Origin: Luteibacter rhizovicinus DSM 16549
Lineage (GTDB): Bacteria > Pseudomonadota > Gammaproteobacteria > Xanthomonadales > Rhodanobacteraceae
Direction: 5' to 3'
Length of the DNA stretch: 64,000 nucleotides
Assembly (NCBI RefSeq): GCF_001887595.1
Contig: NZ_CP017480.1
Location: forward strand, 3,252,001 to 3,316,000
Under the pieces are notes generated by a model that ran no database searches, was not told the origin of the DNA, and was given only the letters and a program-made list of their open reading frames with translations. Shown here one piece after another: positions 18,319 through 28,547 of the stretch (position 1 is the first letter of the stretch; each line of letters starts with the position of its first letter). The position numbers and the translations under genes were made by a program.

Positions 18319-18346
18319 TTGACACGGACCCGGCGGAGCCTATGAT
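18319..18346 (+). promoter_or_regulatory. Sigma-70 promoter of the RiPP operon
   Basis: TTGACA (18319-18324), a 16-base spacer and TATGAT (18341-18346). The -35 is consensus and the -10 has one mismatch. Transcription would start near 18353, leaving a leader of about 24 bases with AGGGG before the ATG at 18377. It is one of the strongest promoter matches in the window. Confidence 0.75.
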
Positions 18347-18376
18347 CTCGTGGCGTTTACTAATCAGGGGAAGATG

Positions 18377-18610
18377 ATGCGCGACACCGTCGATTTGCTA
18401 GAAGCCATTGGCCGTGATGCCAACCTGCGTCGTGCCTCGCCCGAGGTTCTTGCCCGGGTACTCGAGGCGACGCATGCCTCGCCCGGCCTGCTTGAACTGG
18501 TCGCCAACGGCGACAGCACCGGCCTGAAGAACGAACTCGGTCTGGTCGACAGGTATGTCGAGCACATGAGCCAGACAGGCGCCCACGAAGCGGACCTGTT
18601 CCTGAACTAA
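18377..18610 (+). CDS. Split-borosin precursor peptide A
   Basis: 77-residue peptide, first of three paralogues around the methyltransferase gene. The start is fixed by aligning AGGGG-N6-ATG with the two paralogues; the frame is open to GTG 18350, but the promoter places the transcript start after that codon. Residues 1-56 are helical (LLEAIGRDA, SPEVLARVLEA, ASPGLLELVANGD, ELGL), like the borosin-binding domain of SonA in Shewanella. The tail from 57 (VDRYVEHMSQTGAHEADLFLN overall, to residue 77) is the candidate core and ends LFLN. The substrate role is inferred from neighbour and architecture. A weak hairpin (18666-18681) lies downstream. Confidence 0.8.
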   Translation: MRDTVDLLEAIGRDANLRRASPEVLARVLEATHASPGLLELVANGDSTGLKNELGLVDRYVEHMSQTGAHEADLFLN

Positions 18611-18798
18611 GGAACCCTCGGCATGACCCGGAACGACCTGACACGCGCAGATCTCTGGAAAGGCTCCCTGTCAGAGCAGGGTGGCCGCCGGTCGTAAATG
18701 TGAACTGCGTCGCATCTTGACGAGGGGTCGTCGCCGGTCCTCGGACCGCCATCGGCATGCCCTCGTTTGTCATCATCGCTTTTGCATACTGTGACCCC
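18611..18798 (+). other. Gap between precursor A and methyltransferase
   Basis: 188 bases without a supported gene. It holds a 5-bp hairpin CCCTG-TCAGAG-CAGGG (18666-18681) and an inverted repeat CGGTCC-tc-GGACCG (18735-18748). Either could reduce read-through, giving more precursor than enzyme. No convincing second promoter or Shine-Dalgarno sequence is visible before the methyltransferase ATG. Confidence 0.4.
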
Positions 18799-19644
18799 AT
18801 GAACACACCCAATTCCGAATCGACCGACGCTCCCCGCGGCAGCATCACCTCCGTAGGCATGGGCATCACCCTGGGCTCACATCTGACGCCCATCGCGCGT
18901 AACTACATCGAGACCGCGGATATCGTCTTCGCCGCGCTGTCGGATCATGTCGTCGAACTGTGGCTGGAGCGCTTGAATCCGAACATCCGCAGCCTCCAGC
19001 CGTACTACAAGCCGGGCAAGTCCCGGATGAAGACCTATCGCGAATGGGTCGAGGTCATGATGACCGAGGTACGTGCCGGCAAGCGCGTCTGCGCGGTCTT
19101 CTACGGCCACCCCGGGATATTTGCCTGGTCGCCGCACAAGGTGATCGAGGTCGCTCGTGCCGAAGGCTACGAGGCGTACATGGAGCCCGGCATTTCCGCC
19201 GAGGACTGCCTGTACGCCGATCTCGGCATCGACCCGGCCCGCTTCGGCTGCCAGCATCTCGAAGCCAGCCAGTTGCTGTTTTTCGAGCGCAACCTCGATA
19301 CGACTGGCCACGTGATTCTCTGGCAGCTCGGCGTCGTCGGCGATCGTTCGCTGGGGCGGTTCCGGACGCCGGATGCGTACCGCGAACTGCTGACCGAGCG
19401 TTTGTGCCAGGACTATCCGGCTGACCACGAGGTCATCGTCTATCGCGCGCCGACGCTGCCGATCGAAGGCCCGCATATCCAGCGCGTGGCGCTACGCGAC
19501 TTCACCTCCGCCGAATACACGGGTCACGAGACGCTGGTGATTCCGCCGGCCCAGGCACTGAAGCCGAACGCCATCATGCGAGCGCGTCTCGATGCACTCG
19601 ATGCCATCCACGGCTCGGGCGTCGAGCCGGCAGTCACCGCATAA
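18799..19644 (+). CDS. Borosin-type alpha-N-methyltransferase (tetrapyrrole-methylase fold)
   Basis: 281-residue SAM-dependent enzyme. It belongs to the tetrapyrrole-methylase fold but resembles the borosin backbone N-methyltransferases SonM and OphMA. Shared features are an N-terminal SVGMGITLG strand-loop, ARNYIETADIVFAALSD, catalytic-type Tyr69/Tyr70, Arg76 and Tyr80 (GKSRMKTYREWV), FYGHPGIFAW (101-110) and EPGISAEDCLYADLGIDP. It should methylate main-chain amides of the adjacent precursor peptides, acting in trans. Start: ATG 18799; a longer frame from 18757 adds residues without similarity. No clear ribosome site. No other tailoring enzyme, protease or exporter is adjacent. Residue roles are transferred from memory of SonM/OphMA. 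Confidence 0.85.
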   Translation: MNTPNSESTDAPRGSITSVGMGITLGSHLTPIARNYIETADIVFAALSDHVVELWLERLNPNIRSLQPYYKPGKSRMKTYREWVEVMMTEVRAGKRVCAVFYGHPGIFAWSPHKVIEVARAEGYEAYMEPGISAEDCLYADLGIDPARFGCQHLEASQLLFFERNLDTTGHVILWQLGVVGDRSLGRFRTPDAYRELLTERLCQDYPADHEVIVYRAPTLPIEGPHIQRVALRDFTSAEYTGHETLVIPPAQALKPNAIMRARLDALDAIHGSGVEPAVTA

Positions 19645-19680
19645 TCGTTCGGCCAATCCATCCATCCATAGGGGAAAACC

Positions 19681-19914
19681 ATGCGCGACACCGTCGAATT
19701 GCTCGAAGCCATTGGCCGCGATGCCACCTTGCGTCGTGCCTCGCCCGAGGTGCTGGCGCGGACGCTTAGGGCCGTCAATGCCTCGCCCGCCTTGCTCGAA
19801 CGGGTCACCTTCGGTGACAACACCGCGTTGACGAGCGAGCTGGGACTTAGCGACAGATATACCGAGCACCAGACCCAGACGGCGCATGACGACGAGGATT
19901 CCCTCTTCAACTGA
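19681..19914 (+). CDS. Split-borosin precursor peptide B
   Basis: 77 residues, 36 bases after the methyltransferase, ribosome site AGGGGA. The first 27 residues are nearly identical to peptides A and C (MRDTVELLEA, IGRDATLRRA, SPEVLAR), while 28-56 vary more (RAVNASPALLERVTFGD). The tail is the most distinct: EHQTQTAHDDEDSLFN, more acidic, ending SLFN. A conserved leader with a changing tail is the pattern expected of RiPP leader and core. Function inferred from the cluster. Confidence 0.8.
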   Translation: MRDTVELLEAIGRDATLRRASPEVLARTLRAVNASPALLERVTFGDNTALTSELGLSDRYTEHQTQTAHDDEDSLFN

Positions 19915-19974
19915 GGGAGCGTCGACGGGTTGCTTCAAAGTAGCTGATTCAGCAATGACCACTAGGAGAAGACC

Positions 19975-20205
19975 ATGCGCGACACCGTCGAACTGCTCGA
20001 AGCCATCGGCCGCGACGCCAACTTGCGTCGTGCCTCACCTGAAGTGCTTGCGCGGGCGCTCGAAGCGACCCACGCATCGCCCGGCCTGCTCGAACTTGTA
20101 GCGCGAGGTAACAGCGCTACCTTGGCTAGCGAACTGGGTCTTGTGGACCGGTACACCGAGCATCAGAGCCAGACAGGCGCGCACGAAGATTCGCTCCTGA
20201 ACTGA
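19975..20205 (+). CDS. Split-borosin precursor peptide C
   Basis: 76 residues, 60 bases after peptide B, ribosome site AGGAG. Residues 1-45 match peptide A almost exactly (ATHASPGLLELVARG against ATHASPGLLELVANG), so A and C look like the more recent duplicates. The tail is EHQSQTGAHEDSLLN. All three tails keep a hydrophobic pair or triple just before the final Asn. It is the last gene of the unit, followed 13 bases later by a strong hairpin. Confidence 0.8.
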   Translation: MRDTVELLEAIGRDANLRRASPEVLARALEATHASPGLLELVARGNSATLASELGLVDRYTEHQSQTGAHEDSLLN

Positions 20206-20218
20206 AGAAACGCGGTTC

Positions 20219-20257
20219 GGCCCTAGGTAGCCTGCTACGCGCAGGCTACCTAGGGCC
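20219..20257 (+). terminator. 17-bp-stem hairpin after the RiPP operon
   Basis: Perfect arms GGCCCTAGGTAGCCTGC (20219-20235) and GCAGGCTACCTAGGGCC (20241-20257) with a five-base loop. No U-tract follows, so it may act as a factor-assisted terminator or as a 3' stabiliser of the precursor mRNA. It directly follows the last precursor gene. Confidence 0.65.
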
Positions 20258-21002
20258 GGCCGGCCGGTCGCGCGTGTTGTTGCCGCGCTTTCCGACGTGT
20301 CCACGTAAGTCGCCCTTTGGCATCCCGTCTCGGTGAAGCCCGTCACACAATTACCCGCCAAACGTCATATTTTTGCAGCGCAGCGTGACTCCGCTTCGCT
20401 TTAGCGTCTTAATCTGTCCCCAGGGGATTTAGATCGATCCAAGTCACCGCGCTTTGCATCTTGCCGAGATACGAAGAAAGCGATGGCCTGGACTGGGGTG
20501 GGGAGGGCAGAGGGATGGGCGCATCATGCGCCACCCGAGACGTTGCTGCTTCCTGCCAGGCCTGTCTAGGGGAAGGGGAAGCCGCCACATGAAACCAAGT
20601 AGCACCTGTACGTCGATGAGCTCACGCCCGCGCGATGCGCGCGTGGCTGTATTCATGATGCCTGCCGCTCGCGGCCCGGATCGTTTCCGTCGAGCTCCCG
20701 CCAGCAGTCAGTAGGCGGGACCTGTCACTCGTTGTCGCTGCGTTGCCTCTCGTCGCCAGACGATCGCAACACGGGAAACGCTGTCCTGAGTTCGGAGCAG
20801 CAGTCTTCGTCGTAGCGCAATTCACGCCTTGAGTTGTCCCACGCGCACGCTTTCATGCCCGTTGACAGCCAAAAATTTGGATCGATTGAATTCATTGGGG
20901 AGGGCGCATGTCGCCATAGAACGGGCATCTGCAGCAGTGATGTAACGGGGGACCATCGCGCCGATTCAAGCAAGGCGCACACCACTGAGGGAAATAAAAA
21001 AA
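20258..21002 (+). other. Long intergenic region before the TonB receptor gene
   Basis: 745 bases with no gene I can support; the open frames here have poor starts and composition. The right part contains TTGACA (20862-20867) with a weak TTGAAT 18 bases later, and a 9-bp inverted repeat ATGCCCGTT (20855-20863) / AACGGGCAT (20920-20928). That could fold a hairpin in a 5' leader or bind a regulator of the receptor gene. GAGGGA with an A-rich run (about 20988-21002) precedes the receptor ATG. Confidence 0.45.
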
Positions 21003-24000
21003 ATGACTTATCTGCCACTCATGCTCAAGCGCAAGCCGCTTTGCGCCGCGCTAGCCACGGCCACCTTGTCGCTCGTCGGCTATCTGGGGGTCCCGACGAC
21101 CGCTTTCGCGCAGACCGCCGCGCCTGCCGCAACGACGGTGTCCGCACCGGCACAAACGACTCCCGATGCGACGGTAAAGAAGAACGACAAGGACAAGAAG
21201 ACAGATAAGCAGAGCAACGACACCGCTGCCGGTCCGACAAACCTGGATACCGTCGTCGTCACCAGCTATCGCCAGTCGATCGACCAGAACGTCCTGGACA
21301 AGCGCGACGCGAACTCCATCGTCGAAGTCATCAACGCGCAGAACATCGCGCAGTTCCCCGCCAAGAACATCGCCGACGCATTGGCGCACGTGCCCGGTGT
21401 GGTCATCAGTCGCGAATCCGGCGAAGGCAAGACGGTCAGCATTCGTGGCCTGGCGCCCGAGCTGACGCTGACGGAATTGAACGGTAACTACGTCGCCTCG
21501 GCCGATACCTCGGCCGGCCTGACGCGCTCGTTCAACTACACCCTGATGCCGGCGAACATGTTCTCCGAGATCAAGCTCTACAAGAGCCTCGAGGCACGCC
21601 TGGACGAAGGCGGCATCGGCGGTAACGTCGACCTGCACACGCGCCGTCCGCTGGAAATGAAGGCGAACGACGGCTTCGTGTCCCTCAATGGCGCGGGCTC
21701 CGATAACAGCGGCAAGATCACGCCGCAGACCTCGGCCCTGTGGTCGTGGAAGAACAAGGACGAGACGTTCGGCTTCCTCGTCGCCGGTTCGTACCAGAAG
21801 CGCCGCGATATCGATTACACAGCCAAGGCGGACAGCTGGCACTGGTGGAGCAACGACTGTACGAGCCAGGCCACGTGTACCGCGCCACCGACGGATGTGC
21901 ATGGCCGGCCGTACGGTCCCGACGTGGCGCCCAATCTCGACCTGTGGTCCGGCGGCGGTGTCGTCGACCAGGCCGGCAACGTCGATTCGGGCTACTGGAT
22001 GCCGCAACAGTTTTCCACGAGTCGTAACGAGCTGGACCTGAAGACCAAGGGCGCCCAGGCGACCATGCAGTTCAAGCCCAGCGACCACCTGTTGCTGACC
22101 GGTAACTACTTCCGCTTCCAGCGCCAGCAGACCCAGATCACCAACACACTGGAAGTGCCCGAGTGGGGCCTGCCGAGCAACAGCAACTATGCCGACCAGC
22201 AGGGCAGGTTGCTCGCGCCCAACGGCCTGACCTTCGATCCGTCGCATACCATCGTCACCGGCGCGAATTACGTTCTCCCGCCCAATGGCGTCGGTTGTAA
22301 TTCGCTGACCAACCCGGTCACCGGCAAGCCGCGTCAGGCCGTCGATACCTGCTCCACCGAGATTCCGTGGCTGAACGGCAGCTACAACGTCGAAAAGGCC
22401 ACCTCGCAGACCCTCAACCTGGAAGGCGAGTGGGACAACGGAGGTAGCCTCAGCGGCTCGTTCAACGTCGGCCGCACGTGGGCGACGGGCGGCCCCTCGG
22501 TCCAGTTGAGCATGGCCGCCAAACCGCGCAACTTTGTCAACGGCCAGTGGGTGGACGGCAGCAACGGTGCGGCGTGGACGCTCGGCGGCAAGCCGACCCT
22601 CACTGCCTCGCCGGATGTGCTGCAAAACATGTTGGCCGGTGCAGGGCAGGTGGATCTGGGCTCGACCGGTTCCAACATGGTCAACACCAGCAACTCGCAG
22701 AATTTCGCCCAGGCCGATCTCACCTGGGCTTTCGATTCCAGCTGGTTCCAGTCGCTGCAGTTCGGCTTCAAGTACCGCGACAATCACGCCGAGCAGACGA
22801 ACAACGAGCAGCGCTGGTACTGCAAGGGTACGACGCTGCAGTTTCAGACCTGCGATCCGAACGCTGGCCAGTTGCCTGCGGGATTCCTCCAGGCGAACTC
22901 GCTCGACGGGACCAATGAAGCCTACAGCGACAGCACCTTCCCGGCGATCAATTACCCGGCGTACTACAACTATCTCAACCAGACCTACGACCGGGTGCTG
23001 TACAACCACCCCGATGACAAGTCGTCGATTCAGGAGAAGATCGCGGCGGCCTACGTGCAGGCGAACTTCGACACCGGCACCGTCCGCGGTAACGTGGGCC
23101 TGCGCTTTGTCAGCACGGGTCAGGACCTGACGGTTGCCAACGAGATCACAACCAACAACGCGGTGTACTACCACGATGGGGGCGGCAACATCCTGATCTG
23201 CCCGACGACCGGCCAGAACATTGCCGGCGGTGCCTGCGCACCGGGTGACTTCCAGTACCAGCCGCGCGAAGTGGCAGTCGTGCAGACCTTCGAGAACAGC
23301 TCCACGCGCAAGCGCTACAACAAAGCGTTGCCGAGTTTCAATATCGCATGGAACGTCCTGGACGACGTCGTGGTCCGCGCCGCAGGTTCGCAGGCATTGG
23401 CGCGCGCCAACTATACGGATCTGGCTCAGCTGGGCAGCCTGACCAACAACACCCAGGCCTACTACGACGACCGCAAGCAGTTCGGCGCACCACTCCCGGG
23501 ATGGTACGGTAGCGGCGCTAATGCGGACCTGAAACCGTTCACGGCGACCCAGTTCGACCTCGCCACCGAGTGGTACTACGCACCGCATTCGGTGGTTGGC
23601 ATCGATCTGTTCCAGAAGAAGGTGAAGAACTTCGTCGTACCGGTCACGGTCAACAACATCAATGTCGACGTTAACGGTACGCCGACGAACTTCATGCAGT
23701 ACAGCACCAATGCCAATGGCCGCTCGGGTACGTCCAAGGGCATCGAGTTCTACACGCAGCACACCTGGGACAACGGCTTCGGCTACATCGCCAACTACAC
23801 GCTTAACCACACCACGGAAACCCCGGTTTCCCTGGGTGACACGCAGGTGGGCAAGTCCGAGCTGATCGGCAGCGCCAAGTATGCGGCCAACGTGTCGGTG
23901 TTCTACGAAAAGAACGGTCTGCTGCTTCGCGCCAGTGACAACTTCACTGGCCGGACCATGCAGGGCCTCGCGGCAGGCCTTCCGATTTATTCGGCGCCGT

Positions 24001-24194
24001 ATCACCAGATCGATCTGAACGGTGACTACGAGTTCAACAAGCACTTCATGGTCACCGCGTCGGTCATCAACCTGTCGAAGTCGACGCCTCACCAGTACCT
24101 GGGCAGCGATACCACGGCACGTCTGGTCAGCCTCGAATATGCAGGCCGCCAGTACTACGTAGGCATCACGTACAAGTTCGGTGATGGCGGTTAA
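21003..24194 (+). CDS. TonB-dependent outer-membrane receptor (carbohydrate type)
   Basis: 1063-residue receptor. Signal peptide to about residue 37 (TTAFAQ), an Ala/Thr/Lys-rich linker, then a TonB-box-like stretch LDTVVVTSYRQSI (about 81-93). The plug domain follows (IADALAHVPGVVISRESGEG, VSIRGL), then a large beta-barrel ending in Tyr/Phe-rich strands (YYVGITYKF). The size and the TSYRQS box are typical of the xanthomonad and Caulobacter receptors for oligosaccharides. It is followed by GH92 and GH2 glycosidases, so a mannose-containing glycan is the likely ligand. Starts at Met1 or Met7 both leave the signal intact. Confidence 0.93.
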   Translation: MTYLPLMLKRKPLCAALATATLSLVGYLGVPTTAFAQTAAPAATTVSAPAQTTPDATVKKNDKDKKTDKQSNDTAAGPTNLDTVVVTSYRQSIDQNVLDKRDANSIVEVINAQNIAQFPAKNIADALAHVPGVVISRESGEGKTVSIRGLAPELTLTELNGNYVASADTSAGLTRSFNYTLMPANMFSEIKLYKSLEARLDEGGIGGNVDLHTRRPLEMKANDGFVSLNGAGSDNSGKITPQTSALWSWKNKDETFGFLVAGSYQKRRDIDYTAKADSWHWWSNDCTSQATCTAPPTDVHGRPYGPDVAPNLDLWSGGGVVDQAGNVDSGYWMPQQFSTSRNELDLKTKGAQATMQFKPSDHLLLTGNYFRFQRQQTQITNTLEVPEWGLPSNSNYADQQGRLLAPNGLTFDPSHTIVTGANYVLPPNGVGCNSLTNPVTGKPRQAVDTCSTEIPWLNGSYNVEKATSQTLNLEGEWDNGGSLSGSFNVGRTWATGGPSVQLSMAAKPRNFVNGQWVDGSNGAAWTLGGKPTLTASPDVLQNMLAGAGQVDLGSTGSNMVNTSNSQNFAQADLTWAFDSSWFQSLQFGFKYRDNHAEQTNNEQRWYCKGTTLQFQTCDPNAGQLPAGFLQANSLDGTNEAYSDSTFPAINYPAYYNYLNQTYDRVLYNHPDDKSSIQEKIAAAYVQANFDTGTVRGNVGLRFVSTGQDLTVANEITTNNAVYYHDGGGNILICPTTGQNIAGGACAPGDFQYQPREVAVVQTFENSSTRKRYNKALPSFNIAWNVLDDVVVRAAGSQALARANYTDLAQLGSLTNNTQAYYDDRKQFGAPLPGWYGSGANADLKPFTATQFDLATEWYYAPHSVVGIDLFQKKVKNFVVPVTVNNINVDVNGTPTNFMQYSTNANGRSGTSKGIEFYTQHTWDNGFGYIANYTLNHTTETPVSLGDTQVGKSELIGSAKYAANVSVFYEKNGLLLRASDNFTGRTMQGLAAGLPIYSAPYHQIDLNGDYEFNKHFMVTASVINLSKSTPHQYLGSDTTARLVSLEYAGRQYYVGITYKFGDGG

Positions 24195-24202
24195 AGAAGT
24201 CC

Positions 24203-24241
24203 AGCGGGGCCAGGCCTGATACCTGGCCCCGCTTTCGTTTT
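24203..24241 (+). terminator. Intrinsic terminator after TonB receptor
   Basis: Arms AGCGGGGCCAGG (24203-24214) and CCTGGCCCCGCT (24222-24233) pair perfectly with a seven-base loop, followed by the T-rich TTCGTTTTCG. It lies nine bases after the receptor stop and just before the GH92 ribosome site, so it probably gives high receptor and lower glycosidase transcript levels. Confidence 0.8.
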
Positions 24242-24256
24242 CGTCCCCAGGAAAAC

Positions 24257-26632
24257 ATGATGAATTCCCCACAGCTATCGTTCTATCGCCGCCGTGCTCT
24301 CGCGGTGACGCTTTCGGTCTTCGCGCTCGGCACCCTCAGCGCGGCCCACGCAGGCCATGACACACCGTCAACCTCCACCCTTTCGCCCGTCGATGCAGCG
24401 AATCCGCTCGTCGGCACGGCACCGCTGGACAGGAAAGAGTTCATCGGCAATGCGCCGCCACCGGGCGAGCCGCTGTATTCGGGCATGACCTCGCCCGGTG
24501 CGAGCCTGCCGCAAAGCTCGACCGACGCCGCGCCGGTCAACATCAACGCCGACCTGAGTTTCGCCACCGGCGTTCCGGTCGCGTATGCCTACGGGCGCCC
24601 CGCAATGATCGGCTTCACCGGCGGCGGCTCGACGTACGGTGCGCGCGCCGCGCCGATGATCATGCCCGTGGTCGGTGACTGGACCGTCCCGCCAGACTAC
24701 GCGTCGTCGTATTACGACAAGGCGACCGAGAAAGCATCGCCCGGCTACTACGCCGTCGATCTGGCCACGTTCCACACCCGCGCCGAACTGACGGTGACGC
24801 AGTGGACCAGCCTGATGCGCTTCACCTTTCCGGACAGCCATCGGTCTAACGTGGTGGTGAACCTTCGTCGCGGCGGTGGTGACGTCGCAGTCGTCGGTGA
24901 TCGCACTATCACCGGTGTCGACAAAGGAAGCCGCGGCAACCACGACGCCGATGGCCCTTATTTCATCGCGGAATTTTCGCGCCCGTTCGCCGCCTTCGGT
25001 ACGTTCCACGCGGACGTCAATGACAAGGGTGAAGGGCTCGGCCGCGAAGATATCCAGACCGGCCAGCGCACGGTTTCTGGGAACTACGCGGGCGCCTACG
25101 TCACCTTCGATACGAAGGACGGCGATCAGGTGCTGGTGAGGATCGCGCACGGTCACAGTGCGGATGAGGCCGCGCAGCGGCTGCACGCAGCGGATGCCGA
25201 TTTCGACAGCGTGCACCGCAAGGCGCGTGCGGCCTGGGCGCAGCTGTTCGATCGAGTCGAAGTGACTGGCGGTACGCCGAAGCAGCGCGCCTTGTTCTAT
25301 TCGACGCTCTATCACTCCTTTGCCAGCCCGCGTGTCGTCGCACGCAAGGGCGAGCACTACACCGATGCCAAGGGCCAGCTTCAGGTCGCCGCGTACGATC
25401 TTTACAGTCCCGTCCCGTACTGGGACACCGGCCGTAACCAGATCGCCTTGCTGATGTTGCTCCAGCCAAAGGTGGTGCAGGACATCATGCGCTCCGAGCT
25501 GGAGCGGGCACGCGAACACGGCTACATGAACACCTCGTTCCATGGCGACCACGCCGTGTTCCTCTATGACGGCGCCATGCAGCGCGGCATTCCGTTCGAC
25601 TATGCAGGCGCGTACGAGGTATTGCGCAAGAACGCGACCGATCCGAAGGGGCCGCGCGGTTACCTCGCCGAGTACGACAAGAACGGCTGGATTTCGGACA
25701 TCGTGCCGCCGGGCAATCCGAGCCCACCTTATGCCGGTGGCAAGGCCGGTGTCGCGACGACCCTCGAATATGCCTGGGACGACCACGCGCTAGCCGATCT
25801 CGCCCGTCGCCTGGGCAAGAAGGACGATGCCGCGATGTTCGAGCGTCGCGCCGGCAACTACCGCAACGTCTTCGATCCCTCGGTGGGCTTCTTCCGCGGT
25901 CGTACCGACGACGGCAAGTGGATCTCGCCATTCGATCCGGCGGAGCCGTATTACAACTTCATGATGAAGGAAGGTTCGGGCTGGTCGACGCTCTGGCTGG
26001 TGCCGCACGACGTGCAGGGCCTGATGAACCTGCTCGGCGGGCGCGATGCCTTCAATGCCAAGCTCGACACGTTCTTCAACACGCCGTATGCCCCGAAGGG
26101 CATCTGCCGCGACTGCACGGGCGTGATCGGCCAGTACGTCCAGGGCAACCAGCCAGACCAGCAGGCCGCCTATCTCTATGCATGGAGCGGGCAGCCCTGG
26201 AAGACCCAGGCGCTGACCCGTCGCATCCTCGCCGATCTGTACGGCAGCGATGCCACCGGTTACGGTTATCCCGGTATGGATGATCAGGGCTCGACATCGT
26301 CGTGGTATGTGCTCAGCGCCATGGGCTTCTACCCGGTGGATCCCGCGACACCTGACTACATCATTGGCAGTCCGATCTTCGATCGCGTCCGCCTGCACCT
26401 GGGCAACGACAAGGTTTTCGAGATCGACGCAAAGAACAATTCCGAGCGGAACATCTACATCCAGTCCGCCACACTCAACGGCAAGCCCTGGACCAAACCC
26501 TGGTTCAGCCATGCCGACATCGCCAACGGCGCCAAGCTGGAACTGACCATGGGCCCGGAACCCAGTCAGACCTGGGGTAGTAACCCTCATGATGCCCCCG
26601 CATCCATGTCGCCCCCCGCCGCTACCCATTAA
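24257..26632 (+). CDS. GH92 family alpha-mannosidase-type glycosidase
   Basis: 791 residues, exported (signal to about residue 32, AAHA-G). GH92 landmarks: VDAANPLVGT near the N-terminus, then a long beta-sandwich domain. The catalytic (alpha/alpha)6 domain has FYSTLYHSF, KEGSGWSTLWLVPHDVQGL and GMDDQGSTSSWYVLSAMGFYPVDP. GH92 enzymes are Ca2+-dependent exo-alpha-mannosidases. In the +1 subsite region this copy reads GNQPDQQ where the family often has an Asn/His-Glu-Pro pattern, so linkage specificity is unclear. Start at the first of two ATGs, with AGGA upstream. It precedes the GH2 gene by 10 bases. Confidence 0.9.
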   Translation: MMNSPQLSFYRRRALAVTLSVFALGTLSAAHAGHDTPSTSTLSPVDAANPLVGTAPLDRKEFIGNAPPPGEPLYSGMTSPGASLPQSSTDAAPVNINADLSFATGVPVAYAYGRPAMIGFTGGGSTYGARAAPMIMPVVGDWTVPPDYASSYYDKATEKASPGYYAVDLATFHTRAELTVTQWTSLMRFTFPDSHRSNVVVNLRRGGGDVAVVGDRTITGVDKGSRGNHDADGPYFIAEFSRPFAAFGTFHADVNDKGEGLGREDIQTGQRTVSGNYAGAYVTFDTKDGDQVLVRIAHGHSADEAAQRLHAADADFDSVHRKARAAWAQLFDRVEVTGGTPKQRALFYSTLYHSFASPRVVARKGEHYTDAKGQLQVAAYDLYSPVPYWDTGRNQIALLMLLQPKVVQDIMRSELERAREHGYMNTSFHGDHAVFLYDGAMQRGIPFDYAGAYEVLRKNATDPKGPRGYLAEYDKNGWISDIVPPGNPSPPYAGGKAGVATTLEYAWDDHALADLARRLGKKDDAAMFERRAGNYRNVFDPSVGFFRGRTDDGKWISPFDPAEPYYNFMMKEGSGWSTLWLVPHDVQGLMNLLGGRDAFNAKLDTFFNTPYAPKGICRDCTGVIGQYVQGNQPDQQAAYLYAWSGQPWKTQALTRRILADLYGSDATGYGYPGMDDQGSTSSWYVLSAMGFYPVDPATPDYIIGSPIFDRVRLHLGNDKVFEIDAKNNSERNIYIQSATLNGKPWTKPWFSHADIANGAKLELTMGPEPSQTWGSNPHDAPASMSPPAATH

Positions 26633-26642
26633 GAAGCAGACC

Positions 26643-28547
26643 ATGACGACCAACGCAAAAGAAATGTGGGAGCCGCTTCAGCGGCGATGGCATGAGCTGG
26701 CGAAGCGCCAAACGTGGCTCGCCATGACCATCGCCCTCGGAGCTGCTCCCATGGCCATGGCCGCGACGGATAATGCCGCCACCTGGAGCGGCAAGCCCGC
26801 TCTCCTGAGCACCCCCTGGACCGCCGAAGTCTCCCCCACCAACGCCTTGCCCGACTATCCCCGGCCCCAGTTGGCACGTCCTTCGCTGGATCACCCCCAG
26901 TGGCTGAGCCTCAACGGCCTGTGGCAGTACGCAGCCACGGACGGAAACACTGCGCCCGCGTTCGGAAAGGCCCTCAAGGACAAGGTCCTGGTCCCATACC
27001 CGATCGAGTCTGTCCTCTCAGGTGTGCAAAAGCACGCCGACTTCATGACCTACCGCCGCCTGGTGGATATCCCCGCCGCCTTCACCGCACACGGCCAGCA
27101 CGTACGGCTTAACTTCGGCGCCGTCGCGCAGGACGCCACGGTTTACGTCAACGGTAAGGAAGTGGCACGCCATACGGGCGGCTATACATCCTTCAGCGCA
27201 GACATCACGCCGGCGCTCGTTCCGAAGGGCCAGCAGGAGATCGTCGTCGCCGTGCACGCGCCGGTCGACAGCGTCAACGTCATGGTGGGCAAGCAGCGCC
27301 TCAAGCCCGATGGCATCTTTTACACCGCGGCCTCGGGCATCTGGCAATCGGTGTGGCTGGAACCGGTGCCGGCAACGAGTCTGGCGCAGATCGAGTTCAC
27401 TCCGGCATCCAGCCTGGATGCCTTTACCGTGACATCGAAAGTGCAGGGCGCCAACGACAACGCGACGCTGCATATCACCGCGTACGCGGATGGCAGACCG
27501 GTGGGCGAAGCGAAGGGCCCGACCGGTACGCCGCTGCATGTCGCCATCGCGCATCCGCATCTGTGGAGTCCGCAAGATCCTTTCCTCTACACCTTCAAGG
27601 CCACGCTCACCCAGGGCGATCAGCACGACGACGTCACGAGCTACGCCGGCCTGCGCACTATCGGTATCGCCAAGGTGGGCGGCCTCAATCGCATCGTGTT
27701 GAATGGCAAGCCGACCTTCCTGCTGGGCACGCTCGACCAGGGCTACTGGCCGGACGGCATCTACACCGCACCGACCGATGCGGCGCTGAAGTTCGACATC
27801 CAGAAGACGAAGGACCTCGGCTTCAACACCATCCGCAAGCACATCAAGGTCGAGCCCGCGCGCTGGTATTACTGGGCCGACCGTATCGGCCTGATGGTCT
27901 GGCAGGACATGCCCTCGCTGCCGAACGGCCACAACGACAAACTCAGCGATGCCGACAAGGCCGGTTTCCGCACCGACGTCTCGGCCATCGTCGAGCAACT
28001 GAAGGGCGAGACGTCGATCATCGGCTGGATCCCGTTCAACGAAGGCTGGGGCCAGTGGAGCATTCCGGCAGCGGCCGAGCTGGCGGCGCAGATCAAGAAG
28101 ATCGACCCCTCGCGACTGGTCAATGCCCGTAGCGGCGCCAACTGCTGCGACACGAAGGGCGATCCGCAGGCCGGTGACCTCATCGACATCCACGATTATC
28201 AGGGGCCCGGTTTGCCCGCCCCCGATGCGACACGCGCTTCGATGGACGGTGAACACGGCGGCCTGACTCTCGGCGTCGCCGGACACATCTGGCCGAACAC
28301 CGCCATCAACCCGTACGGCGCCGTGAAAGACAACGCCGCCTTGAACGACGGCTACGTCGCCAACACCGCCGTACTGCGTGACAAGGGTCCGGGCATCGGC
28401 GTATCCGGCAGCGTCTACACCCAGATCACCGACGTCGAAGGCGAGCACAACGGCCTATACACCTACGACCGCAAGATCGAAAAAGTAGACGAGGGCAGGG
28501 TGCGCAAGATCAACGAAGCCACGATCCAGGCAGGCGGCCCACACTGA
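26643..28547 (+). CDS. GH2-like glycoside hydrolase
   Basis: 634-residue GH2-clan enzyme: jelly-roll sugar-binding domain (about 70-230, LSLNGLWQY, YRRLVDIPAAF), an immunoglobulin-like domain (about 240-330) and a TIM barrel. The predicted acid/base is Glu467 (FNEGWGQW) and a possible nucleophile is Glu599 (QITDVEGEHNG). The N-terminus is unusual: codons 8-16 (MWEPLQRRW) are read from a REP element (26665-26690), followed by a signal-like hydrophobic run ending AMA-A (about 25-41). The true start could be further in. It is likely co-transcribed with the GH92 gene, and by context a beta-mannosidase or beta-galactosidase-like activity is plausible. Confidence 0.85.
   Translation: MTTNAKEMWEPLQRRWHELAKRQTWLAMTIALGAAPMAMAATDNAATWSGKPALLSTPWTAEVSPTNALPDYPRPQLARPSLDHPQWLSLNGLWQYAATDGNTAPAFGKALKDKVLVPYPIESVLSGVQKHADFMTYRRLVDIPAAFTAHGQHVRLNFGAVAQDATVYVNGKEVARHTGGYTSFSADITPALVPKGQQEIVVAVHAPVDSVNVMVGKQRLKPDGIFYTAASGIWQSVWLEPVPATSLAQIEFTPASSLDAFTVTSKVQGANDNATLHITAYADGRPVGEAKGPTGTPLHVAIAHPHLWSPQDPFLYTFKATLTQGDQHDDVTSYAGLRTIGIAKVGGLNRIVLNGKPTFLLGTLDQGYWPDGIYTAPTDAALKFDIQKTKDLGFNTIRKHIKVEPARWYYWADRIGLMVWQDMPSLPNGHNDKLSDADKAGFRTDVSAIVEQLKGETSIIGWIPFNEGWGQWSIPAAAELAAQIKKIDPSRLVNARSGANCCDTKGDPQAGDLIDIHDYQGPGLPAPDATRASMDGEHGGLTLGVAGHIWPNTAINPYGAVKDNAALNDGYVANTAVLRDKGPGIGVSGSVYTQITDVEGEHNGLYTYDRKIEKVDEGRVRKINEATIQAGGPH
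26665..26690 (+). repeat. REP element inside a coding start
   Basis: TGTGGGAGCCGCTTCAGCGG followed by CGATGG, the same palindromic repeat found in intergenic positions at 28567, 46341 and 46405. Here it is read through as part of the GH2 N-terminus. Confidence 0.8.

What the first reader, a model, noticed from the sequence alone, without database searches (positions are those of the whole stretch)
18319..20257. Probable split borosin (alpha-N-methylated RiPP) gene cluster with three precursors
Directly seen: a SAM methyltransferase of tetrapyrrole-methylase fold flanked by three short paralogous peptides (A before, B and C after), a strong promoter and a closing hairpin. Known: SonM/SonA of Shewanella and fungal OphMA are backbone N-methyltransferases with this fold, where the precursor carries a helical borosin-binding domain and a C-terminal core. 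The enzyme shares YGHPGIF and EPGISAEDCLYADLGIDP-type motifs and Tyr/Arg/Tyr positions. Inference: the peptides are methylated on main-chain amides. An annotation pipeline would call the enzyme tetrapyrrole methylase and miss the peptides.
Basis: partly seen in the sequence, partly recalled or inferred. Interest (0 to 1): 0.95.

Follow-up and report, generated by a model that had tools for sequence, protein, structure and literature searches.

The report
Peptide-methylating operon that lost its sensor
A Luteibacter bacterium carries a gene for an enzyme of the kind that methylates peptide backbones, with three small peptide genes that are its predicted substrates; at most related loci examined a similar pair sits beside a gene for a membrane sensor predicted to make the messenger c-di-GMP, so such peptides may be signals.

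Summary
Observation confirmed; the split-borosin reading is supported. The 281-aa enzyme (18799-19644) matches SonM at 1.3e-69 and OphMA-type enzymes at about 1e-50, against 5e-5 for the best corrin methylase, and keeps SonM's four catalytic/cofactor residues. Three paralogous 76-77-aa precursors flank it, under purifying selection (dN/dS 0.07-0.13). Methylation is untested. Wider setting: of 68 methyltransferase ORFs examined (the window's included), 57 have within 6 kb a gene for signal peptide, TPR-like part, transmembrane helix and intact GGDEF motif; in three genomes enzyme and GGDEF are one ORF. Precursor and sensor diverge together (r 0.82). The window locus and its nearest relative lack that sensor and carry only short, tail-less precursors; the genome holds 17 intact precursors at three loci, two with the sensor. 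Best reading: a split borosin of a lineage whose N-methylated peptide is probably the ligand of a diguanylate cyclase, the window copy being a receptor-less cassette. A GGDEF-bearing borosin architecture is already named in a figure legend (PMC11395268), and the main borosin papers were not held, so novelty of the operon link is unproven.

The parts
18319..18346 (+). promoter-like site TTGACA-16-TATGAT before the gene cluster
   Evidence: 11 of 12 consensus matches, mean 0.3 in shuffles; function untested
18377..18610 (+). precursor A, 77 aa (BBD-like leader about residues 1-55, core-like segment after it)
   Evidence: (7.7e-39 to profile A1, which contains it), dN/dS 0.12 against L037
18542..18607 (+). 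predicted core region of precursor A (residues 56-77, holding VEHMSQTGAHE)
   Evidence: by alignment to SonA; register uncertain, methylation untested
18799..19644 (+). SonM-type peptide alpha-N-methyltransferase (by homology), 281 aa
   Evidence: SonM 1.3e-69; 115 of 251 aligned residues identical, catalytic residues kept; SonM chains are Foldseek ranks 1-12 for the read-through model
19681..19914 (+). precursor B, 77 aa
   Evidence: (7.1e-34 to profile A1, which contains it), dN/dS 0.13
19846..19911 (+). predicted core region of precursor B (residues 56-77, TEHQTQTAHDD)
   Evidence: as for A
19975..20205 (+). precursor C, 76 aa
   Evidence: (4.8e-39 to profile A1, which contains it), dN/dS 0.07
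20140..20202 (+). predicted core region of precursor C (residues 56-76, TEHQSQTGAHE)
   Evidence: E62, H63, Q66, T67 conserved in at least 90% of the 51 sequences aligned; methylation untested
20218..20258 (+). perfect 18-bp inverted repeat after the last precursor
   Evidence: one copy in the window at up to 3 mismatches; z -5.4; no T-run

Best explanation
The window holds a split-borosin gene cluster, a SonM-type methyltransferase gene with three short precursor genes whose peptides it is predicted to methylate on main-chain amides, and it belongs to a lineage in which such peptides are likely the ligands of a predicted TPR-sensor diguanylate cyclase encoded beside them, a gene that this locus lacks and has probably lost. 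Steps: (1) shown from sequence: enzyme family, catalytic residues kept, three paralogous precursors under purifying selection. (2) Inferred: the precursor's N-terminal domain docks on the enzyme as SonA's does, and SAM-dependent methylation falls in or next to the conserved EHxSQTG segment (about residues 62-68; register uncertain). (3) Shown by sequence in relatives: at most examined loci a precursor gene directly precedes a gene for signal peptide + TPR-like part + transmembrane helix + GGDEF with an intact GG[DE]EF motif. (4) Inferred: a cut-out methylated peptide reaches the periplasm, binds the TPR part and changes c-di-GMP synthesis. (5) Inferred: the window's tail-less peptides act as extra or diversified ligands, perhaps on the sensors at the genome's two other borosin loci. 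My confidence is about 0.93 for the borosin part (1-2) and about 0.4 for step 4.
For: Enzyme: SonM 1.3e-69, OphMA-type about 1e-50, best corrin enzyme 4.7e-5; Y58, R67, Y71, Y93 of SonM kept. Enzyme and precursor travel together: 46 pairs co-diverge, Mantel r 0.77 against a maximum of 0.26 in 2000 permutations, and none of 5000 within-genome partner swaps reaches it. Sensor link: 57 of 68 methyltransferase ORFs in 66 loci have a same-strand full-length TPR-GGDEF within 6 kb; among the other 11, L130 has GGDEF and methyltransferase in one 857-aa ORF, and so have L137 and L138, which were outside that count. In the own genome 27 loci match the sensor query, only 2 over its full length, and both sit at its other two borosin loci. 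Precursor and sensor co-diverge over 58 adjacent pairs, r 0.82; 0 of 3000 within-genome swaps reach it. All 87 full-length sensors in the fetched loci keep GG[DE]EF. 11 of 20 sensor genes without a nearby methyltransferase have a precursor directly upstream. Window and L037 nest inside sensor-bearing loci at strong support. Their precursors are still under purifying selection.
Against: No call shows methylation, a product, export, cleavage or a c-di-GMP effect. I recognised no exporter or protease gene at the window-orthologous loci, though not every recurring ORF there was scanned. By eye the precursors have no signal peptide, so how a peptide would reach a periplasmic sensor is unexplained. 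9 of 20 methyltransferase-free sensors have no precursor found beside them. Without the sensor are also L131 (same family), L120 (same order) and the 3 enzymes sampled outside the order, L127-L129. Only 51 of 87 sensors have an RxxD I-site by the pattern used; the two of the own genome do not. The direct precursor-to-SonA match is weak: profile E 0.19 against PDB, hhalign 66%, none with C alone or profile A1. Models of precursor and read-through pair were low in confidence and the precursor found no convincing fold match. Co-divergence also follows from shared ancestry of whole gene sets. The core is polar, whereas a review calls the cores methylated by tested borosin enzymes primarily hydrophobic (PMC11285071, passage).
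Confidence: 0.55

Rival explanations
1. Ordinary split borosin whose product is an exported bioactive or protective peptide; the GGDEF neighbour regulates production or is merely co-transcribed, and is not the peptide's receptor.
For: Enzyme and precursor evidence as above. The window locus and L037 keep enzyme and precursors under selection without the sensor. Three class-level loci lack the sensor.
Against: Sensor co-divergence with the precursor, natural enzyme-GGDEF fusions and precursor-sensor pairs without a local enzyme are not expected of a chance neighbour, though a regulator could also show them.
Confidence: 0.3
2. The precursor is a cytoplasmic partner protein, not the source of a released peptide: its helical domain and methylated tail stay whole and tune the methyltransferase or the cyclase inside the cell.
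For: By eye the precursors have no signal peptide; no protease or exporter was recognised at the window-orthologous loci (not all ORFs scanned); precursor-sensor pairs exist without an enzyme nearby; in the fusions the methyltransferase follows GGDEF, so on its predicted cytoplasmic side.
Against: Co-divergence is higher with the sensor part (r 0.82) than with the GGDEF part (r 0.70), which points to the TPR side, predicted to be periplasmic.
Confidence: 0.1
3. A metal-handling borosin: the His/Asp/Glu-rich tails of the long precursors bind metal.
For: Tails of 10 long window-orthologue precursors are 54% D/E/H against 22% in the leader, and less conserved (44% pairwise identity) than leader (76%) or core (70%).
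Against: The window's own three precursors have no such tail; composition alone is weak evidence.
Confidence: 0.04
4. A corrin, siroheme or YabN-type methylase beside unrelated small ORFs.
For: PF00590 fold family, 74.2 bits.
Against: SonM 1.3e-69 against 4.7e-5 for the best corrin enzyme; NCBIfam models far below cut-off; co-divergence with the precursors.
Confidence: 0.01

Closest known systems
SonM/SonA split borosin of Shewanella oneidensis (type IV)
   Same: Separate methyltransferase and precursor of about 75 aa; 115 of 251 aligned residues identical, same catalytic residues; leader of similar length; sensor-linked precursors of the same order match SonA at 2.2e-15 (L126) and about 2e-9 (L123).
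   Different: Three precursors, a polar core, and a leader only weakly similar to SonA; most examined relatives have an adjacent TPR-GGDEF gene. Whether SonM has one beside it could not be checked here.
Fused fungal borosins (OphMA, dbOphMA, MroMA)
   Same: Homologous methyltransferase domain, E 7e-45 to 2e-50.
   Different: Precursor is not fused; TAA and TAG lie between enzyme and precursor B.
GGDEF-bearing borosin architecture named in the Figure 1 legend of Xu et al. 2024 (PMC11395268)
   Same: GGDEF and borosin methyltransferase are associated, as in the fusions L130, L137, L138.
   Different: The legend (section read) only names the domain; the figure and its source papers were not seen. 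The window locus has no GGDEF.
TPR peptide receptors of the RRNPP type (recalled, from no call)
   Same: A TPR domain reading a short self-made peptide would be the working analogy.
   Different: Here the TPR part follows a signal-like peptide and feeds a GGDEF domain; no homology was tested.

Membership tests
split borosin (type IV-like) | alpha-N-methyltransferase and precursor encoded as separate, adjacent genes (definition in PMC8429565 section 6) | tested here: met
   four separate ORFs within 18377-20205
split borosin (type IV-like) | enzyme homologous to SonM/OphMA rather than to tetrapyrrole methylases | tested here: met
split borosin (type IV-like) | catalytic Y58, R67, Y71 and cofactor Y93 of SonM (PMC8429565 passages) | tested here: met
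   Y70, R76, Y80, Y102; also F108 and W175 for F99 and W166; Q178 is R187 and R68 is M77
split borosin (type IV-like) | precursor leader is a five-helix borosin binding domain homologous to SonA | tested here: inconclusive
   AF2 gives five helices within residues 2-53 but pLDDT 59, no convincing fold match; hhalign to SonA 66%, E 5.5e-5 for one comparison, PDB profile E 0.19; indirect link: window-family profile A5 finds the L123 precursor at 3.5e-5, which matches SonA at about 2e-9
split borosin (type IV-like) | backbone N-methylation of the core by mass spectrometry | not testable with these tools
   needs co-expression and LC-MS/MS
fused borosin (types I-III) | precursor fused to the methyltransferase | tested here: not met
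   TAA (position 282) and TAG (position 291) separate enzyme and precursor B
corrin/siroheme/YabN methylases | score above the curated NCBIfam cut-offs | tested here: not met
   best 40.8 bits against a cut-off of 525; the other six listed are below theirs too
sensor-coupled borosin locus (enzyme + precursor + TPR-GGDEF; my own grouping) | full-length TPR-GGDEF within 6 kb on the same strand | tested here: not met
   window: none; met at the genome's other two borosin loci

The most novel reading that the evidence does not exclude
Backbone-N-methylated ribosomal peptides are bacterial signals: in this order a borosin methyltransferase, its precursor and a periplasmic TPR-sensor diguanylate cyclase form a ligand-receptor system that writes a self-made methylated peptide into c-di-GMP. 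The window is an orphan-ligand cassette that shed its receptor and acid tails and multiplied its ligands in a genome with 17 precursors.
Probability: 0.35. Interest if true: 0.9.

Novelty: new variant of a known kind. Interest (0 to 1): 0.72.

Why it matters
In 2021 no type IV pathway was yet tied to a final natural product (PMC8429565, discussion passage); a later paper by Crone and others reports, by its title as I recall it, one bacterial borosin product, but it was not held. In the passages I read I saw no biological role for a bacterial borosin. A receptor-like partner gene next to the precursor gives a direct assay: bind the methylated core to the TPR domain and read c-di-GMP. If it works, borosins would be a peptide-signalling system in Gram-negative bacteria and backbone methylation a way to make a durable signal. 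Even without that, this genome offers 17 natural precursors for a family of peptide methyltransferases that is of interest for engineering.

Tried and rejected

Direct search of PDB with precursor C and with profile A1 did not find SonA; profile A5 found it only at E 0.19 among unrelated hits.

Glycan-use neighbours (TonB receptor and two glycosidase-like ORFs, 21003-28547) recur at 7 to 9 of 11 orthologous loci, in opposite orientation at several; I treat them as synteny, not as part of the system.

Remnant of a lost sensor gene: tblastn of 87 sensors against the window and L037 found nothing convincing (the 1e-4 hit in L037 covers residues 5-78 of an ORF called too long at its start, which there includes a precursor).

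Methylated positions: two alignments place SonA L63/I65 at different residues of the window precursors, so only a segment is named.

Acid-tail tests: 44 of 50 sensor-bearing loci and 0 of 4 sensor-free loci have an acid-tailed precursor (Fisher 6.6e-4; 54 of 66 loci, 12 left out because the profile found no precursor at the cut used, and one short fragment in L050 dropped). Per precursor, 50 of 56 long (80 aa or more) and 4 of 34 short ones directly precede the sensor gene. In both, weak hits in L116, L119 and L121 were let in by hand. Loci and array copies are related, so these p-values are not independent evidence.

Not checked: the neighbourhood of SonM in Shewanella (the 56 genomes gave 2 matches, of unknown name). 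Papers: Imani 2022, Lee 2024 and Crone 2023 were not held; Cho 2022 was not looked up. Searches of the held library: borosin with Luteibacter 0 papers, with diguanylate cyclase 0, with GGDEF 1, with c-di-GMP 0. Seen of papers: PMC8429565 sections 6 and 7 and passages; PMC11395268 sections 3 and 28 and passages; PMC11285071 passages; all others search listings only.
Full report
OBSERVATION. The four genes, the promoter-like site and the hairpin are present at the stated places. The enzyme start at 18799 is chosen by homology: many close relatives are also 281 aa and begin alike. A, B and C are 77, 77 and 76 aa. Spacing is 188 bp from A to enzyme, 36 bp from enzyme to B and 60 bp from B to C, all on one strand, so one transcript is likely but not shown. 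Between the window and L037 (enzyme 95% identical), dN/dS is 0.04 for the enzyme and 0.12, 0.13 and 0.07 for A, B and C, so the short ORFs are real, selected genes. The genome is of the same genus as G019, whose contig C11 has the length of a Luteibacter sp. dw_328 contig with the same match.

ENZYME. PF00590 at 74.2 bits. Against PDB: SonM 1.3e-69, dbOphMA 1.8e-50, OphMA about 2e-49, MroMA 7e-45; best tetrapyrrole enzyme 2e0k at 4.7e-5. No NCBIfam model listed passes its cut-off. SonM residues that PMC8429565 ties to catalysis and locking (passages) are mostly conserved: Y58, R67, Y71, Y93, F99, E146 and W166 are kept (window Y70, R76, Y80, Y102, F108, E155, W175); R68 becomes M and Q178 becomes R. 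6375 database proteins match at E<=1e-20 (not all need be borosins), so the family is large.

PRECURSORS. Precursor C has 103 matches at E<=0.01 including A, B and itself. Those whose record names an organism are Luteibacter or Pinirhizobacter. There are short forms (76-81 aa, and one of 51) and long forms (93-128 aa); the long ones aligned have an acidic, often His-rich tail. E62, H63, Q66 and T67 are at least 90% conserved in the 51 of 103 sequences aligned. The leader is linked to SonA weakly in direct comparison and better through intermediates: the window-family profile A5 finds the L123 and L126 precursors (3.5e-5 and 2.2e-3), which match SonA in PDB at about 2e-9 and 2.2e-15.

OWN GENOME. 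Three enzymes: the window copy, C1:1826249-1827064 (66%) and C1:4541942-4542721 (55%). Precursors: 3, 11 and 3 intact ORFs plus one fragment at C1:1823413-1823562. In a census of 147 family genomes the own genome has 18 profile matches and the next highest 5 (at most 35 candidates scored per genome). The close relative G019, with 13 precursors at three loci, was not among the 147.

DISTRIBUTION. Enzyme matches at E<=1e-30 in 94 of 147 family genomes, but at E<=1e-25 in only 4 of 274 genomes sampled across the class, the own one included.

THE SENSOR. One search showed a recurring ORF of about 600 aa beside enzyme and precursor; it is present at 10 of the 11 loci orthologous to the window (L038-L047, not L037). 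Three window-type examples and a neighbouring paralogue scanned are GGDEF proteins (1e-32 to 1e-37) with TPR matches mostly below cut-off before it; the two of the own genome pass curated TPR cut-offs. Their start looks like a signal peptide and a hydrophobic helix precedes GGDEF: by a simple hydropathy rule all 87 full-length examples in the fetched loci pass both, and all 87 keep GG[DE]EF; 51 of 87 have an RxxD I-site by the pattern used. I then examined 66 loci with 68 methyltransferase ORFs. They were taken from well over 100 enzyme matches, by enzyme match, some for their number of precursors or an odd frame length, none for a sensor. 57 of 68 have the full-length sensor on the same strand within 6 kb. 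The 11 without are the window, L037, L071, L091, L094, L120, L127-L129, L130 and L131. L130 is a fusion of TPR, GGDEF and methyltransferase in 857 aa; L137 and L138, fetched later, are alike (821 and 867 aa). Left out before the count: L065, L066 and L087 (second fetches of loci counted), L067 (not used) and L073 (3.3-kb contig). L128 is a short stretch (6.7 kb) but was counted.

SPECIFICITY. 46 enzyme-precursor pairs co-diverge (r 0.77; maximum of 2000 permutations 0.26; 0 of 5000 within-genome swaps reach it; L053, L071, L073 and L087 dropped beforehand). 58 adjacent precursor-sensor pairs, some from loci picked by the sensor, co-diverge with r 0.82 for the sensor part and 0.70 for GGDEF; 0 of 3000 within-genome swaps reach either. 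Such correlations also arise when whole gene sets share ancestry, so they show that partners travel together, not that they bind.

SENSORS WITHOUT ENZYME. Among 15 genomes of the genus (own one included) I count by hand 51 full-length sensors, 30 of them within 6 kb of an enzyme. I fetched 20 of the other 21: 11 have a precursor directly upstream, 9 have none found, and none of the 20 has an enzyme in its 12 kb.

WHAT THE WINDOW IS. In the enzyme tree the window and L037 form a supported pair (100/94) nested with L038 (100/99) and ten further sensor-bearing rows (100/96), so the sensor was most simply lost there. The own genome has no window-type sensor elsewhere: its two full-length matches are 46% and 36% identical to the L045 sensor and sit at the other two borosin loci, while the best matches in relatives, mostly beside window-type enzymes, are 63-74% identical to it. 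The four sensor-free loci with a profile-found precursor (window, L037, L091, L094) have only tail-less precursors, against 44 of 50 sensor-bearing loci with an acid-tailed one; relatedness of loci makes this softer than its p-value.

MECHANISM. Shown: enzyme family, residues, gene order, selection, sensor architecture by sequence, natural fusions. Predicted: docking of the leader on the enzyme and methylation in or near residues 62-68. Inferred: release of a methylated peptide and sensing by the TPR part with a change in c-di-GMP. Unknown: protease, exporter, role of the acid tail.

AGAINST KNOWN. As an enzyme-precursor set this is a split borosin, close to type IV. A GGDEF domain in a borosin architecture is already named in a figure legend of PMC11395268 (section read), so the association as such is not new. 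Whether the gene set with the TPR sensor is in print I could not learn: the main papers were not held, and searches of the held library for borosin with diguanylate cyclase or with c-di-GMP gave none.

CHANGES AFTER SELF-CHECK.

Noticed in passing
L035:5590-9180 (own genome, about C1:1822589-1826179, minus strand): Tandem array of 11 intact precursors after the second borosin methyltransferase, ending in the only acid-tailed copy, which abuts a TPR-GGDEF gene; one further copy is a fragment. G019 has 7 at its corresponding locus (L051).
   Followed up: partly
L036:8590-8901 (own genome, third borosin locus): Precursor whose C-terminal part looks by eye like four to five copies of a unit of about nine residues (TDEFRAVQMV/TAFHGALMI/SDFQASQIL/TDFQATQMG/TEFQ), a possible multi-core precursor.
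   Followed up: no
L095-L101, L103, L109, L112, L113: Precursor directly followed by a TPR-GGDEF gene with no methyltransferase nearby: possible substrates of an enzyme encoded elsewhere.
   Followed up: partly
L130:6138-8711, L137:6341-8806, L138:4571-7174: Single ORFs joining GGDEF and borosin methyltransferase, each with a SonA-like precursor just upstream (TPR by Pfam only for L130, below its cut-off).
   Followed up: yes
L093:3282-11120 and L074:6001-11419: Repeated precursor + TPR-GGDEF units (three and two) behind one methyltransferase.
   Followed up: no
window 21003-28547: TonB-dependent receptor followed by two large ORFs that look like glycosidases (recalled resemblance, not scanned); they recur at 7 to 9 of 11 orthologous loci.
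   Followed up: partly
window 18799-20205: Enzyme, precursor B and precursor C all start in the same reading frame; probably chance.
   Followed up: no
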